From Verrucomicrobiaceae bacterium (lineage in GTDB: Bacteria > Verrucomicrobiota > Verrucomicrobiia > Verrucomicrobiales > Verrucomicrobiaceae), in NCBI GenBank assembly GCA_947458455.1, contig CANGYJ010000001.1, positions 434,001 to 498,000 on the forward strand: a DNA stretch of 64,000 bases, given 5' to 3'. Numbering within the stretch: position 1 is the stretch's first letter; each line of letters starts with the position of its first letter. Position numbers and translations under genes: made by a program. Under the pieces are notes generated by a model. That model was given only the letters and a program-made list of their open reading frames with translations. It was not told where the DNA came from and ran no database searches. Shown here piece by piece: positions 10,074 through 62,440 of this stretch.

Positions 10074-11045
10074 ATGCCTGCCTGCCAGATCGAATACTAT
10101 TCTGACAACGCCGCTTCGCGGGACGAGCTGATCCCCTGGCTCATCGCCAGTGATCCAGAACCTCTGAGCGAGGCAATGTGGCAGCGGCGGCTAGCGCACT
10201 GGTGGGATGAGAATCCTTTCGCATCCCTCGCGCCATCTCGCGGCTGGGTTTTGCGTCATGAAGGCAGGATCGCAGGCTTCATGGCGCTCATTCCTGCCGG
10301 TTATGCCGCCGGTGGTAAGCTTAATGCCGCCTACATCGCCTCCACCTGGCGGGTGGATAAAGACCATCGCAATGCCAGCCTGCCCATGCTCATGAAGCTG
10401 CGGCGCCTCGCAGCCAGCGCCCTGATGGCTGACACCACCCCCACGCCAGACGTGCAGCTCATGCTGCAAAAAAGCGGCTGGCTCCCGGCTACGGCCATCA
10501 CGCGCCATTTTGTGCCCCTCGGCCTCTTCAGCATGCTCGCGGGAAAAAAATGGCCGCAGCTTCCCGCAGGCAAAAAACTCACGCGTGATCCTTTTGAGGT
10601 CAAAAGCATCGCAGCAAGCTTTCAAAGGCCTGACAGCATCGAAAAATGGATCACGCCCGAGTATCTGCGTTGGCTCTCCGCCGCCCCGATGCGGCGTCAT
10701 GAGTTCCTCGGTGTGCTCGATGAGGCCGGCTGCCTCACCAGCTACCTTTTCCTCACGCCGAAGAACATCCGTGGCATCCCCGCCTGGATGGAAATCGATC
10801 ACTTCACGGTCAGCCATAGCTTCACCGAGCTCCACGCCCTCGTCGGTGAACTGGTGCGAAGGCCTTCCCTGCTCGGCAGCGAGCGTCTTCTCTCCCTCGC
10901 CAGTTTTCCCGGTGATGTCTCATGGGATGAAGCCCCCACTCTCCACCACCGTGAAGAGCAAGTGACGCATCACTTTTCGATTCCTGAACCTCTGAAGGTT
11001 CTGCCCAAACACAGCGTCCTCTCTGAGGGCGATTGGGGCCTTTAA
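10074..11045 (+). CDS. GNAT-like acyltransferase, about 323 aa
   Basis: A soluble protein of 323 residues from ATG 10074; a TTG at 10053 is an in-frame alternative. The segment WVLRHEGRIAGFMALIPAGY followed by AAYIASTWRVDKDHRNASLPMLMKLRR looks like the beta4-beta5 and acetyl-CoA-binding helix region of an N-acetyltransferase, and the second half (LGVLDEAGCLTSYLFLTPK) could be a second, degenerate lobe. No close family is recognised. It converges on the carrier-protein gene with a 4-base overlap of the two stop regions, and the neighbours suggest it might use an acyl or aminoacyl group carried by that protein. This link is inference. Confidence 0.6.
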   Translation: MPACQIEYYSDNAASRDELIPWLIASDPEPLSEAMWQRRLAHWWDENPFASLAPSRGWVLRHEGRIAGFMALIPAGYAAGGKLNAAYIASTWRVDKDHRNASLPMLMKLRRLAASALMADTTPTPDVQLMLQKSGWLPATAITRHFVPLGLFSMLAGKKWPQLPAGKKLTRDPFEVKSIAASFQRPDSIEKWITPEYLRWLSAAPMRRHEFLGVLDEAGCLTSYLFLTPKNIRGIPAWMEIDHFTVSHSFTELHALVGELVRRPSLLGSERLLSLASFPGDVSWDEAPTLHHREEQVTHHFSIPEPLKVLPKHSVLSEGDWGL

Positions 11046-11290
11046 CTGAGTTTCTCGATCACCGCGAGGAGGTGATTCCCTGTGGAAAAAGTATCCACGG
11101 TCATCATCTCATCCGGAATCTGCACACCGAGTTGGTGCTCGATTTCCATCAGGAGATCAATGGAGGCCATGGAGTCGAGACCGAGCTTGCCAAGGTCTTC
11201 ATCCATGGGCACAGCGGCATCGGCGGAGAGGAAGCGGAGCTTCGAGCGGAGGATTTCCTGAAGTTTCGGAGTGAGATCGGCAGCGGTCAT
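11042..11290 (-). CDS. Acyl carrier protein
   Basis: An 82-residue carrier protein. The phosphopantetheine attachment serine is Ser40 in LGKLGLDSMASIDLLMEIE, and the flanking helix pattern is that of an ACP/PCP. ATG 11290 is chosen because it gives a normal ACP N-terminus; a GTG at 11314 would overlap the previous gene. It is the last gene of a three-gene set (ligase, decarboxylase, carrier protein) on the minus strand, starting 13 bases after the decarboxylase stop. A carrier next to an AMP-forming ligase and a PLP decarboxylase is unlike the fatty-acid ACP, which sits with fab genes; this one probably holds an amino acid. Confidence 0.88.
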   Translation of the reverse strand: MTAADLTPKLQEILRSKLRFLSADAAVPMDEDLGKLGLDSMASIDLLMEIEHQLGVQIPDEMMTVDTFSTGNHLLAVIEKLS

Positions 11291-11303
11291 GGGGGAGAAC
11301 GAA

Positions 11304-12527
11304 TTAAACAGCACGATAAGGGTTATGCCAGCACTGGAAGACCCACTTTTCGACCACCTCGTGGCCGCGATAGGCCACTTCTTCCGGGGTCTCGTGGCTC
11401 AAAAAGCCGAGCAGGCTGGCGGTGAGGCCGTAAGCGCCCACATTCGGCACGGCGAGCACATCCCCCACCTCGACGGGCGACATCTTTTGGCCTCGCGCCA
11501 GGCTATCGAGCGGGCTGCAAAGCGGTCCGACAACATCGGCGACCATCTCCCCCTCTCGCCTCGCGGTGAGATTGATCAAAGTCAGCGCCGCACGCGGAAT
11601 GCGGCCGAGGCCAGACATGCCGCCGAGGTGATGAATGCCCGTGTCGAGCACGATGTAGGTCTTCGTTCCGGCTTTCTTCACATCGAGTACCGTCGTGAGC
11701 AACGTGCCGCTGCTGGCGCAGAGGTAACGCCCGCTCTCAAAACAGAGCTGCGCCTTGCCATGCATCGGCGAGGCCTTCCACACAGCCTCCAGAGCCTCAC
11801 GCAAACCCGCAAGATCGCTACCCGCTGCCTCGCTGGCGTAGGGCCATGGAAAACCGCCGCCCACATTGATGACCTCGCATTCAAGGCCCAGCGCACTCGA
11901 AACACGCGCCGCTGTCTCCAGCGCACACTGGGTGTTCTTGGCCAGTGCCTCCACCGAGGCCACCTGGGTGCCGAAATAGACATGCACACCATTGATGGTG
12001 AGGTTCGGCAGCTTCAAACGATCCGCCGCACCTTCAGTGAGCAGCAGCGTCTCATCGAAGCCGAACTGGCTCTCCACCCCACTCATCGCCAATCGAGCAT
12101 CGGGAGCCTGCTGCGGATTCACTCGCAGCATCGCCTTGATCTGCACACCAGCCTCCACGGCCAACTTCGAGAGTCGTGCAGCATCCGTGAAGCTCTCGCA
12201 GGAAAAATGCGTCACGCCATTCTCCAGCATCCTCGCGATCATCGACTCCGATTTGCCGGGTCCGCCGAAGACGATGCCGTCCTCGAAACCTGCGTTCTGA
12301 GCCGCCAACAACTCCCCATTCGAGGTGATCTCCGCCCGCACTCCTTGCTCACGCAGTTCACGGGCGATGGCTGGCAGCGGATTGGCTTTGAAGGAGTAGT
12401 AGAGCCGTGATCCCTGCGGCAAAGCGGCGAGCAGCGTTTGCGCCCGGTGCTTCACCGCGTCCAAATCATAGGCGTAAAGCGGCGAGCCATGTTTCTCGAT
12501 CAGTTGATGGGCGAAGGCAGTGTTCAT
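11304..12527 (-). CDS. PLP-dependent fold-type III decarboxylase, DAP/Orn decarboxylase family
   Basis: A 407-residue alanine-racemase-fold decarboxylase. The PLP lysine is Lys48 in LYYSFKANPLPAIA; glycine-rich phosphate-binding text VINVGGGFPWPY, the FESGRYL segment, the active-site GPLCSPLDSL motif and the VGAYGLTASLLGF tyrosine follow in family order. ATG 12527 is preferred to 12533 because GAGGAG lies at proper spacing from it. In a lysine or polyamine pathway such an enzyme would decarboxylate meso-DAP or ornithine, but beside an ACP and an AMP ligase it more closely recalls BtrK of butirosin biosynthesis and the exosortase-A-associated decarboxylase family, which act with carrier proteins. 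Substrate unknown. Confidence 0.88.
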   Translation of the reverse strand: MNTAFAHQLIEKHGSPLYAYDLDAVKHRAQTLLAALPQGSRLYYSFKANPLPAIARELREQGVRAEITSNGELLAAQNAGFEDGIVFGGPGKSESMIARMLENGVTHFSCESFTDAARLSKLAVEAGVQIKAMLRVNPQQAPDARLAMSGVESQFGFDETLLLTEGAADRLKLPNLTINGVHVYFGTQVASVEALAKNTQCALETAARVSSALGLECEVINVGGGFPWPYASEAAGSDLAGLREALEAVWKASPMHGKAQLCFESGRYLCASSGTLLTTVLDVKKAGTKTYIVLDTGIHHLGGMSGLGRIPRAALTLINLTARREGEMVADVVGPLCSPLDSLARGQKMSPVEVGDVLAVPNVGAYGLTASLLGFLSHETPEEVAYRGHEVVEKWVFQCWHNPYRAV

Positions 12528-12570
12528 GGTCATCTCCTCGATAGCTGTCGATTTTGAACGATCACTTCAA

Positions 12571-12690
12571 GGACTGCTCGCCAGCAGGGCTGGCTCCGAA
12601 AAGCGGCAGCAGGCTGCCGCAGTCCAAAGACTTCGTCATTCGAGATTGGGCATTCTTTCGTCATTCGGTATTCGGAATTCGTCATTGCTC
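12571..12690. repeat. Nested palindrome plus AATGACGAA-type repeats
   Basis: The 148-base gap between decarboxylase and ligase is almost all repeat. GGACTGC at 12571-12577 pairs with GCAGTCC at 12619-12625, enclosing a second hairpin GCGGCAG-CAGG-CTGCCGC at 12603-12620. From 12631 the minus strand carries degenerate copies of AATGACGAA/GAATACCGAAT units, and the stop codon of the ligase gene (12682-12684) lies inside one of them. Confidence 0.75.
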
Positions 12691-14214
12691 CGCCAGGAGT
12701 CCCCTCAGGGCTTTTCGATCCACCTTCTGGTTTCCCGTCTTGGGAAGCTCTGGAAGGAAAAACACGCGGTTGGGTACTTTAGCGGGTTCGAGCTTGACAC
12801 TGAGTGCCTGGATGATCTTGGACTCATCGAGCGAAGAGTCTGAAACACTCACAAACAAGCACAGCAGATCCTTCACCTCGTCTTTGACGCAACCCGCAGC
12901 CACGACGCCGAGCATGCGGCAGGCTTCTTCTTCGACCTCCGCCGGGCTGAGGCGATGGCCTTTGTGCTTGATCAGGAAATCACTGCGCCCGTGGATGAAG
13001 AGAAAGCCGTCCGCATCCACGCTGCCGTAGTCTCCACTGCGCAGCGTACGCATGCCATCGAGCATGGGATAGCGCTTCGTCGTCTCCTCCGGTGCCCGCC
13101 AGTAGCCAGGAGCTAGATGGGGGCCGCGCACGCAAAGCTCACCCCTCTCACCGGGCGGCAGGCGCTGGCCATTCTCGTCGATGGCAAAGACCTCCGTGCC
13201 ATCGAGCGGCCTGCCGACGGATTCGGGCTTCGCTTCAAACTCCTCAGGCAGGAGGATGGAGACGCGTTTGCACTCCGTGAGGCCATACATCGGATGCACT
13301 CGAGCCTGCGGAAACAGCTCACGAAGGCTGGCGATGTAGCTTTGAGGCAAATGATCGCCGGTGTTGGTAATGACGCGAATCTTGGGCAGCGGCATCGGCC
13401 GGTAGCGCTGCATCTTGATCAGCCCGCCATACAAAGTCGGCACGCCCGGTAGCACGCTGATCTCCTGCGCCGCGAGGATGCGCGGCAGCTCCGGCCCGGC
13501 CATCTCCGGTCTGCCGATGAAGACCGAGGCACCCGCGATGGCTGCGTAGAAGAGCTGGTAGAGGCCGTAATCGAAGCTCAGTGGCAAAAAGATCGCCACG
13601 CGATCCTCCGGGCGATATTGAAGTCTCGCCTGAATGGCGGCCGACACGAAGCGCACATTGTCATGCGTCAAAATCACCCCGCGAGGTGTGCCCGTGGAGC
13701 CGGAGGTGAAAACGAGGAAGGCTGGATCATCACCCGCACCCGGAAACGGCACCTCCGCAGGCTGTGAATCATCCGGCAGGTCTTCAAAGCGTAGCGCCTC
13801 ACCTTCACTAGCCGTCCAGAGAATCGGCGTGCTACCAAAAACATCTCGCAGGGAAGCCGTCGCAGGCTCCAGCAGGCCCAGCTTCGGCTCCGTCTGATCC
13901 AGGATGCGCTGAAGGCCCTCGGGCTTCATCTGCGGATGCAGGATTACCGCGATCCCACCGATCTGCGCCACAGCAAAAAACATCAGCACCGTCTCGATGC
14001 GGTTCTCCATCACGATCACCACGCGGTCACCATGCCCGATGTCGCGAGCCCGCAGCCACGAAGCGATGCACGCCACGCGCAGCCACGTTTCCGCGTAGGT
14101 CAGTACGCGAGAACCGTCCCTCAAATACTCCCGCTCCGGCCACTGGCGTGCGCCCTCGCGCACCAAGGAAGCGAGGTCGGAATGAGGTGGAATGGGGGTG
14201 GGAGAGCGCGTCAT
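12682..14214 (-). CDS. AMP-forming acyl/aminoacyl ligase (ANL superfamily)
   Basis: A 510-residue adenylate-forming enzyme. Core motifs are in order: FTSGSTGTPRGV (A3, residues 169-180), YGLTEC (A5), RSGDYG (A7), GRSDFLIKHKGHRLSPAEVE (A8) and PKTGNQKVDRKAL with the C-terminal catalytic lysine. No condensation or thioesterase domain is present, so it is a stand-alone adenylation enzyme, expected to activate a carboxylate with ATP and load it on the small carrier protein at 11042-11290. It is similar in architecture to the acyl-CoA ligase family tied to exosortase A systems. It is first in the ligase-decarboxylase-ACP set, separated from the decarboxylase by a repeat-filled gap. Confidence 0.9.
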   Translation of the reverse strand: MTRSPTPIPPHSDLASLVREGARQWPEREYLRDGSRVLTYAETWLRVACIASWLRARDIGHGDRVVIVMENRIETVLMFFAVAQIGGIAVILHPQMKPEGLQRILDQTEPKLGLLEPATASLRDVFGSTPILWTASEGEALRFEDLPDDSQPAEVPFPGAGDDPAFLVFTSGSTGTPRGVILTHDNVRFVSAAIQARLQYRPEDRVAIFLPLSFDYGLYQLFYAAIAGASVFIGRPEMAGPELPRILAAQEISVLPGVPTLYGGLIKMQRYRPMPLPKIRVITNTGDHLPQSYIASLRELFPQARVHPMYGLTECKRVSILLPEEFEAKPESVGRPLDGTEVFAIDENGQRLPPGERGELCVRGPHLAPGYWRAPEETTKRYPMLDGMRTLRSGDYGSVDADGFLFIHGRSDFLIKHKGHRLSPAEVEEEACRMLGVVAAGCVKDEVKDLLCLFVSVSDSSLDESKIIQALSVKLEPAKVPNRVFFLPELPKTGNQKVDRKALRGLLAEQ

Positions 14215-20998: not shown

Positions 20999-21117
20999 AA
21001 TGACGAATTCAGAATTCCGAATGAGGAATGAATGTCGAAGCTCGAATGACGAAAGGCCTCGTGAATGGAACTTCAGGCGTCATTCGTCAATCTACATTCG
21101 CCATTCGTGATTCTCAG
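20999..21117. repeat. Degenerate inverted AATGACGAA-type repeat cluster
   Basis: The whole gap between the pyrophosphatase and leuD is filled by two arms of AATGACGAATT/GAATTCCGAATGAGGAATGA-type units on the plus strand and CATTCGTCAATC/CATTCGCCATTCG units toward leuD, roughly mirror images that could fold into a long imperfect hairpin. The leuD stop (21114-21116) sits at the edge of the last unit. Confidence 0.7.
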
Positions 21118-62309: not shown

Positions 62310-62440
62310 GGCTGGGAAATGACGAAATCAGAATGGCGAATGACGAAAGAATGACGAAGGCTGAATGATGAACGCGATCAGCTCGTGCTTCGTCACTGGG
62401 CATTTATTCGTCATTCTGAATTCTGGTTTCGTCATTCCTT
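62310..62440. repeat. AATGACGAA-type inverted repeat upstream of resB
   Basis: Arms 62318-62347 and 62407-62436, each 30 bases and built of AATGACGAA/GAATGACGAA units, match at 26 of 30 positions. The stop codon of the lipoprotein gene (62432-62434) lies in the right arm. Confidence 0.8.

What the first reader, a model, noticed from the sequence alone, without database searches (positions are those of the whole stretch)
10074..14214. A compact aminoacyl-carrier-protein gene set in a verrucomicrobial genome
A stand-alone AMP-forming ligase, a PLP decarboxylase of the DAP/ornithine fold and an acyl carrier protein (Ser40) are adjacent on one strand, and a GNAT-like gene converges on them. The layout parallels the butirosin side-chain genes (BtrJ ligase, BtrI carrier, BtrK decarboxylase acting on a carrier-bound amino acid) and the ligase and decarboxylase families that accompany exosortase A systems. 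A likely route is ATP-activation of an amino acid, loading on the carrier, decarboxylation to an amine-bearing acyl group, then transfer to an acceptor. No exosortase, NRPS or polyketide genes are near, so this would be a new setting.
Basis: partly seen in the sequence, partly recalled or inferred. Interest (0 to 1): 0.7.

Follow-up and report, generated by a model that had tools for sequence, protein, structure and literature searches.

The report
Carrier-bound beta-amino acid making module
Four neighbouring genes in a Prosthecobacter-like bacterium look like a small stand-alone pathway that hangs an acidic amino acid on a carrier protein, trims it to a beta-alanine-like group and passes that group to an unknown molecule, with chemistry known from antibiotic makers but without any antibiotic assembly line nearby.

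Summary
A ligase, a PLP decarboxylase and an acyl carrier protein (Ser40) lie on one strand, and a GNAT gene converges on them. The closest characterised system is VinN/VinO/VinL (vicenistatin), a closer fit than the butirosin set. The ligase's nearest solved structure is VinN; Asp230, Lys330 and Arg331 are kept. This predicts activation of the side-chain carboxyl of an acidic amino acid, then decarboxylation on the ACP to a beta-alanyl (or GABA) thioester. The fourth gene is a real partner: it sits beside the ACP in 23 of 26 informative Verrucomicrobiaceae loci with varied flanks, co-diverges with the decarboxylase (r 0.95), and folds as an Eis/NMT-like double GNAT with an exactly conserved C-terminus. 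Related operons insert a luciferase-like monooxygenase, as BtrO in butirosin. I infer that the GNAT moves the acyl group from the ACP to an amine, as SbzC and SbzI do. The acceptor is unknown and no activity has been shown. New variant of a known kind.

The parts
10074..11045 (+). Double-GNAT acyltransferase (Eis/NMT-like fold), putative transferase from the ACP to an unknown amine; C-terminus ends exactly at EGDWGL
   Evidence: AlphaFold model pLDDT 90.5; Foldseek and VIA to Eis/NMT; chain end conserved; linked to the ACP in 23 of 26 informative loci
11042..11290 (-). Stand-alone acyl carrier protein, Ser40 in LGLDSM as phosphopantetheine site
   Evidence: PF00550 36.5 bits; one of four PP-binding proteins in the genome; distinct from the fatty-acid ACP
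11304..12533 (-). PLP decarboxylase of the BtrK/VinO type (K49, H184, GGGF, ESGR, C339, D343, Y368 intact)
   Evidence: BtrK best solved match; motif table against own lysA; tree
12682..14214 (-). AMP-forming amino acid:ACP ligase of the VinN type (D215, Y216, T285, K316, R317)
   Evidence: VinN best solved match 299 bits; pocket residues
12534..12681 (.). Ligase-decarboxylase gap with two copies of the over-represented repeat TTCGTCATTCG

Best explanation
A stand-alone beta-aminoacyl-carrier-protein module with a dedicated transferase. (1) The ligase adenylates the side-chain carboxyl of an acidic alpha-amino acid, most likely L-aspartate or a 3-substituted aspartate (L-glutamate less likely), and loads it on Ser40-phosphopantetheine of the ACP. 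(2) The PLP decarboxylase removes the free alpha-carboxyl from the ACP-bound residue, giving beta-alanyl-ACP (or GABA-ACP). (3) The convergent double-GNAT enzyme moves that group from the ACP to an amine of an unknown acceptor, probably with its own C-terminal carboxylate as general base as in NMT. In sister operons a luciferase-like monooxygenase probably hydroxylates the carrier-bound chain before transfer. Shown here: gene content, conserved order, family placement, active-site residues, predicted fold, co-divergence. Inferred: every reaction, the substrate, the GNAT's donor, and the acceptor.
For: Ligase: best solved match VinN (299 bits). The residues that hold the amino and alpha-carboxyl groups in VinN (D230, S299, K330, R331; PMC11253843, PMC7756342) align with D215, T285, K316, R317, with no gap at the shortened beta13-beta14 loop. 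D, T, K and R are invariant in the ligases of this lineage, and the CKR motif is present in nearly all ligases beside such a decarboxylase in other phyla but absent from the accompanying NRPS adenylation domains. Decarboxylase: BtrK is the best solved match (184 bits, 281 with the profile), with ESGR like BtrK where the genome's lysA has EPGR. Free-standing ACP of its own. Order LIG-DC-ACP conserved across phyla. GNAT: beside the ACP in 23 of 26 informative loci, with mostly unshared flanks; GNAT and decarboxylase distances correlate (r 0.947, 0 of 2000 permutations); linked copies all keep the P-loop Arg, unlinked paralogues do not (23/23 against 0/15, the latter one clade); Eis-type Z 16.9 and NMT Z 15.1; chain end conserved. 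Precedent for ligase + ACP + GNAT transfer: SbzB/SbzG/SbzC and SbzL/SbzI (PMC6331615). Precedent for on-carrier decarboxylation: VinN/VinL/VinO (PMC11284099).
Against: No substrate, product or acceptor is shown. VinN Phe231 is Tyr here and Ser299 is Thr, so the exact amino acid is open. The GNAT is confined to Verrucomicrobiaceae and a few other Verrucomicrobiales, while ligase-decarboxylase-ACP sets occur without it elsewhere. Three Verrucomicrobiaceae loci lack a GNAT beside the ACP (L087, L093, L107). That the GNAT uses an ACP donor rather than acyl-CoA is not demonstrated, and the last three residues of the model have low pLDDT. Co-divergence of linked genes would also arise from simple co-inheritance.
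Confidence: 0.62

Rival explanations
1. The ligase-decarboxylase-ACP set makes the beta-aminoacyl-ACP for some other enzyme elsewhere in the genome, and the GNAT acts on CoA donors, for example acetylating the product as capping or self-protection like Eis.
For: Eis-type proteins are the best structural match. The core set occurs without the GNAT outside this lineage, and GNAT paralogues occur without the set.
Against: Tight linkage and co-divergence. The classical Q/R-x-x-G-x-G/A glycines are not present in the linked GNATs, which does not favour a standard acyl-CoA site.
Confidence: 0.22
2. It is a roundabout supply of free beta-alanine for pantothenate/CoA in place of aspartate decarboxylase PanD.
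For: Four of 15 near-complete genomes with the decarboxylase lack a PanD hit, against 2 of 29 without it.
Against: The window's own genome has PanD (G000:C5), as do most carriers. A GNAT partner and a monooxygenase in sister operons are not needed for this. The counts are small.
Confidence: 0.05
3. It is part of an exosortase-A-type envelope system that merely lies apart from its exosortase.
For: The exosortase-A-associated TIGR03098 and TIGR03099 are the top NCBIfam hits. Two exosortases are in the genome.
Against: Scores are far below both cut-offs (308 of 592, 260 of 478 bits). Exosortases also occur in relatives without the module and lie on other contigs. G036 carries ligase and decarboxylase but no exosortase hit.
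Confidence: 0.05
4. The decarboxylase is an ordinary free amino acid decarboxylase (DAP, ornithine, lysine) that happens to sit beside an unrelated ligase and ACP.
For: Shared fold type III family; lysA is the second NCBIfam hit (225 bits).
Against: Below the lysA cut-off while a true lysA exists; BtrK-type motifs; order with ligase and ACP conserved over phyla.
Confidence: 0.03

Closest known systems
VinN / VinL / VinO (vicenistatin; also FlvN for fluvirucin B2, BolO/BolC/BolN for bolagladins)
   Same: Stand-alone adenylation enzyme, stand-alone ACP and PLP decarboxylase acting on the ACP-bound acidic amino acid; VinN is the nearest solved ligase, with D230/K330/R331 kept and S299 as Thr
   Different: No polyketide synthase, NRPS, VinM or VinK nearby; an Eis/NMT-like GNAT takes the place of the downstream transfer machinery
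Butirosin side-chain pathway (BtrI, BtrJ, BtrK, BtrO, BtrH)
   Same: Decarboxylase closest to BtrK; carrier-bound chain; sister operons carry a luciferase-like monooxygenase as BtrO
   Different: Butirosin transfers the chain with BtrH of papain-like fold, not a GNAT; from memory (untested) BtrJ is not of the AMP-forming family; no aminoglycoside genes here
SbzB/SbzG/SbzC and SbzL/SbzI of altemicidin/SB-203208
   Same: Adenylate-forming ligase loads an acyl group on a free-standing ACP and a GNAT enzyme transfers it to an acceptor
   Different: No decarboxylase step on the carrier; sequence relation of the GNATs was not tested
Exosortase-A-associated ligase_PEP_1 (TIGR03098) and dCO2ase_PEP1 (TIGR03099)
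   Same: Top NCBIfam models for ligase and decarboxylase
   Different: Scores far below cut-offs; no exosortase in the window
N-myristoyltransferase and Eis
   Same: Double-GNAT fold over the whole chain; conserved chain end matching the C-terminal end of NMT
   Different: Only about 8-14% sequence identity; donor inferred to be an aminoacyl-ACP, not acyl-CoA; shorter by about 80 residues than Eis

Membership tests
VinN/VinO/VinL-type beta-aminoacyl-ACP set | Ligase of the VinN kind with amino and alpha-carboxyl recognition residues | tested here: met
   D215, K316, R317 conserved; S299 is Thr, F231 is Tyr
VinN/VinO/VinL-type beta-aminoacyl-ACP set | Dedicated stand-alone ACP adjacent | tested here: met
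VinN/VinO/VinL-type beta-aminoacyl-ACP set | Decarboxylation of the ACP-bound, not the free, amino acid | not testable with these tools
   needs an assay
VinN/VinO/VinL-type beta-aminoacyl-ACP set | Product feeds a polyketide or NRPS assembly line | tested here: not met
   No PKS or NRPS seen among the window ORFs read; flanks are rpoA/rplQ and unrelated genes
BtrK-type decarboxylase | Sequence closer to BtrK than to DAP decarboxylases, ESGR motif | tested here: met
Butirosin-type AHBA pathway | BtrH-type acyltransferase and aminoglycoside genes | tested here: not met
   A GNAT is present instead; none among the neighbours read in window or relatives
Exosortase-A-associated TIGR03098/TIGR03099 | Score over the curated cut-off | tested here: not met
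   308.3 of 592.35 and 259.8 of 478.45 bits
LysA / DAP decarboxylase | Score over the TIGR01048 cut-off | tested here: not met
   224.6 of 297.9 bits; genome's own lysA 460.8
Fatty-acid ACP (TIGR00517) | Score over cut-off | tested here: not met
   24.7 of 70.45 bits; G000:C10 ACP scores 115.5
Eis/NMT double GNAT | Two GNAT domains over the whole chain | tested here: met
   Predicted model: Z 16.9 to 2hv2 (3.5 A, 287 residues), 15.1 to NMT 1iyl
Eis/NMT double GNAT | C-terminal carboxylate as base | tested here: inconclusive
   Chain end conserved as EGDxGL in nearly all rows and aligned with the NMT terminus; terminal residues of low pLDDT; catalysis not testable here

The most novel reading that the evidence does not exclude
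A new class of acyltransferase: an NMT/Eis-like double GNAT that takes a beta-alanyl (or GABA, or hydroxylated) group from a dedicated carrier protein and attaches it to proteins or an abundant cell amine, a modification system separate from antibiotic assembly lines and kept or traded as a unit among Verrucomicrobiaceae.
Probability: 0.15. Interest if true: 0.8.

Novelty: new variant of a known kind. Interest (0 to 1): 0.5.

Why it matters
Carrier-bound decarboxylation of acidic amino acids is best known from PKS, NRPS and aminoglycoside clusters. A four-gene, self-contained version with its own transferase, recurring in an understudied phylum, would show the chemistry used for something other than antibiotic assembly lines and gives a small, fully assayable set for finding the acceptor. 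It also offers a possible further case in which a GNAT uses its own chain end as the base, now with an ACP-bound donor.

Tried and rejected
panD replacement: own genome has PanD. Exosortase-A membership: cut-offs not met, exosortases also in relatives without the module. Defence system: no PADLOC hits. Plasmid-borne relatives of the GNAT: none in PLSDB. Sequence-only search for the GNAT among solved structures gave only weak NMT hits (E 0.013), so a fold was predicted. Neighbouring genes in relatives were annotated in search of an acceptor; they differ between genomes (DUF1501, sulfatase, creatininase, oxidoreductase and others) and give no answer. TIGR03099 reference loci from another order could not be searched, so the tree holds no exosortase-A decarboxylase. 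The VinN structure paper (PMC4223343) is not held; its residues are cited through two other papers. No paper on this module in Verrucomicrobiota was found.

Full report
Observation. The ligase (12682-14214 -), decarboxylase (11304-12533 -) and ACP (11042-11290 -) run on one strand, and the GNAT-like gene (10074-11045 +) meets the ACP tail to tail, the stops overlapping by 4 bp. Pfam supports the ligase, the decarboxylase and the ACP. The ACP serine is residue 40 in LGLDSM, as reported.

The ligase. Its nearest solved relative is VinN (3wvn, 299 bits, E 3.7e-88), well ahead of NRPS A-domains and acyl-CoA ligases. VinN activates 3-methylaspartate as a beta-amino acid: Asp230 holds the amino group, and Ser299, Lys330 and Arg331 sit in the pocket with a shortened beta13-beta14 loop (PMC11253843; Asp230 and Ser299/Arg331 roles also in PMC7756342). 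In the window's ligase these are Asp215, Thr285, Lys316 and Arg317, with no gap in the loop; Phe231 is Tyr216. Asp, Thr, Lys and Arg are invariant in the 15 ligases of this lineage. In a wider set the CKR motif is present in nearly all ligases beside such a decarboxylase, from Streptomyces to Okeania, while the accompanying NRPS adenylation domains lack it; a small Acidobacteria/Verrucomicrobia subgroup has TEAFRS instead. I read this as an acidic amino acid activated at its side-chain carboxyl, with the alpha-carboxyl left free. Asp against Glu is not settled.

The decarboxylase. BtrK is the best solved match (184 bits; 281 with the family profile), clearly ahead of DAP decarboxylases. It fails the lysA cut-off (225 of 298), while a true lysA sits on another contig (461 bits). 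It carries ESGR like BtrK where lysA has EPGR, with the PLP lysine, histidine, glycine loop, catalytic Cys-Asp and Tyr in place. The exosortase-A model TIGR03099 is its top NCBIfam hit but is far below cut-off (260 of 478). The phylogeny groups it within Verrucomicrobiaceae, with actinomycete, Myxococcus and gamma/cyanobacterial sets outside; no exosortase-A sequence was available for that tree.

The carrier. The genome has four PP-binding proteins; the fatty-acid ACP is on contig 10 (116 bits) while this one scores 25. One phosphopantetheinyl transferase was found.

Conservation. Ligase-decarboxylase-ACP in this order is found in Verrucomicrobiaceae, Okeania, Marinobacter, Myxococcus, Acidobacteria and many actinomycetes. 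In Marinobacter the set sits between an AurF-type oxygenase and an NRPS gene, and the Okeania and gammaproteobacterial loci have the same arrangement by homology; no NRPS or PKS was seen among the window ORFs. Hence the 'new setting' claim holds in the sense of a stand-alone set, not in the sense of new chemistry.

The fourth gene. Of 26 Verrucomicrobiaceae module loci in which the stretch beyond the ACP can be read, 23 have the GNAT facing the ACP (counted, duplicates of one contig merged; two further loci end too early). Genes further out are mostly not shared, so the unit travels or persists as a block. One genome (G021) carries two divergent copies, each with its own GNAT. GNAT and decarboxylase distances correlate at r 0.947 (21 loci, 0 of 2000 permutations); plain co-inheritance would also give this, so it shows a stable unit rather than function. 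In two Verrucomicrobiales operons (L098, L102) and in L045/L046 a luciferase-like monooxygenase lies between ACP and GNAT, as BtrO acts in butirosin (PMC2922099). In G036 ligase+GNAT and decarboxylase+ACP are on two contigs. Across 388 genomes of the phylum only 5 have the GNAT at this threshold, all in the window's family.

Fold and mechanism of the GNAT. AlphaFold gives pLDDT 90.5. The best matches are Eis-type proteins (2hv2 Z 16.9, 3.5 A over 287 residues; Eis2 16.6) and then NMTs (1iyl Z 15.1, 6.5 A). In NMT the C-terminal carboxylate is the catalytic base (PMC4964394 and PMC7048800), and F402 at the Eis chain end is proposed as a remote base. In this family the chain ends at the same place in nearly every member (EGDxGL then stop, one residue longer in the most distant), and the model's end aligns with the NMT ends (451, 455, 496). 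This is a reasonable but untested parallel; the last three residues are of low confidence. All 23 linked GNATs keep an Arg at the P-loop start, and 15 unlinked or distal paralogues lack it; those paralogues form one clade, so this is one event. A GNAT taking acyl groups from a ligase-loaded ACP is established for SbzC and SbzI (PMC6331615).

Rivals. A CoA-dependent GNAT is the main one. PanD replacement is unlikely because the genome has PanD. An exosortase-A link is unlikely because cut-offs are missed and exosortases occur with and without the module.

Verdict. The acceptor is the open question.

Noticed in passing
12632-12667, 21018-21107, 62337-62438: Repeat TTCGTCATTCG is over-represented (11 matches with up to one mismatch against 1.7 expected), often in close pairs.
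   Followed up: partly
L118, L119, L120, L148: A variant set in Acidobacteria and Verrucomicrobia has ligase motif TEAFRS and decarboxylase motif GPTDYALD without the usual Cys; in L118-L120 an NTP_transf_5-type gene is near.
   Followed up: partly
L097, L099, L105, L106, L108, L113: Verrucomicrobiales loci with decarboxylase and ACP beside a glycosyltransferase-type gene but no ligase of this type within reach.
   Followed up: partly
L103, L110, L121: Okeania, Marinobacter and a gammaproteobacterium share an AurF-type oxygenase, ligase, decarboxylase, ACP and an NRPS gene in a row: a probable shared natural-product cluster.
   Followed up: partly
L061-L070: GNAT paralogues without the module often lie near DUF1501 and DUF1549/DUF1553 genes.
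   Followed up: partly
L045, L046, L098, L102: Luciferase-like monooxygenase inserted between ACP and GNAT; best NCBIfam hits are alkanesulfonate monooxygenase but far below cut-off.
   Followed up: yes
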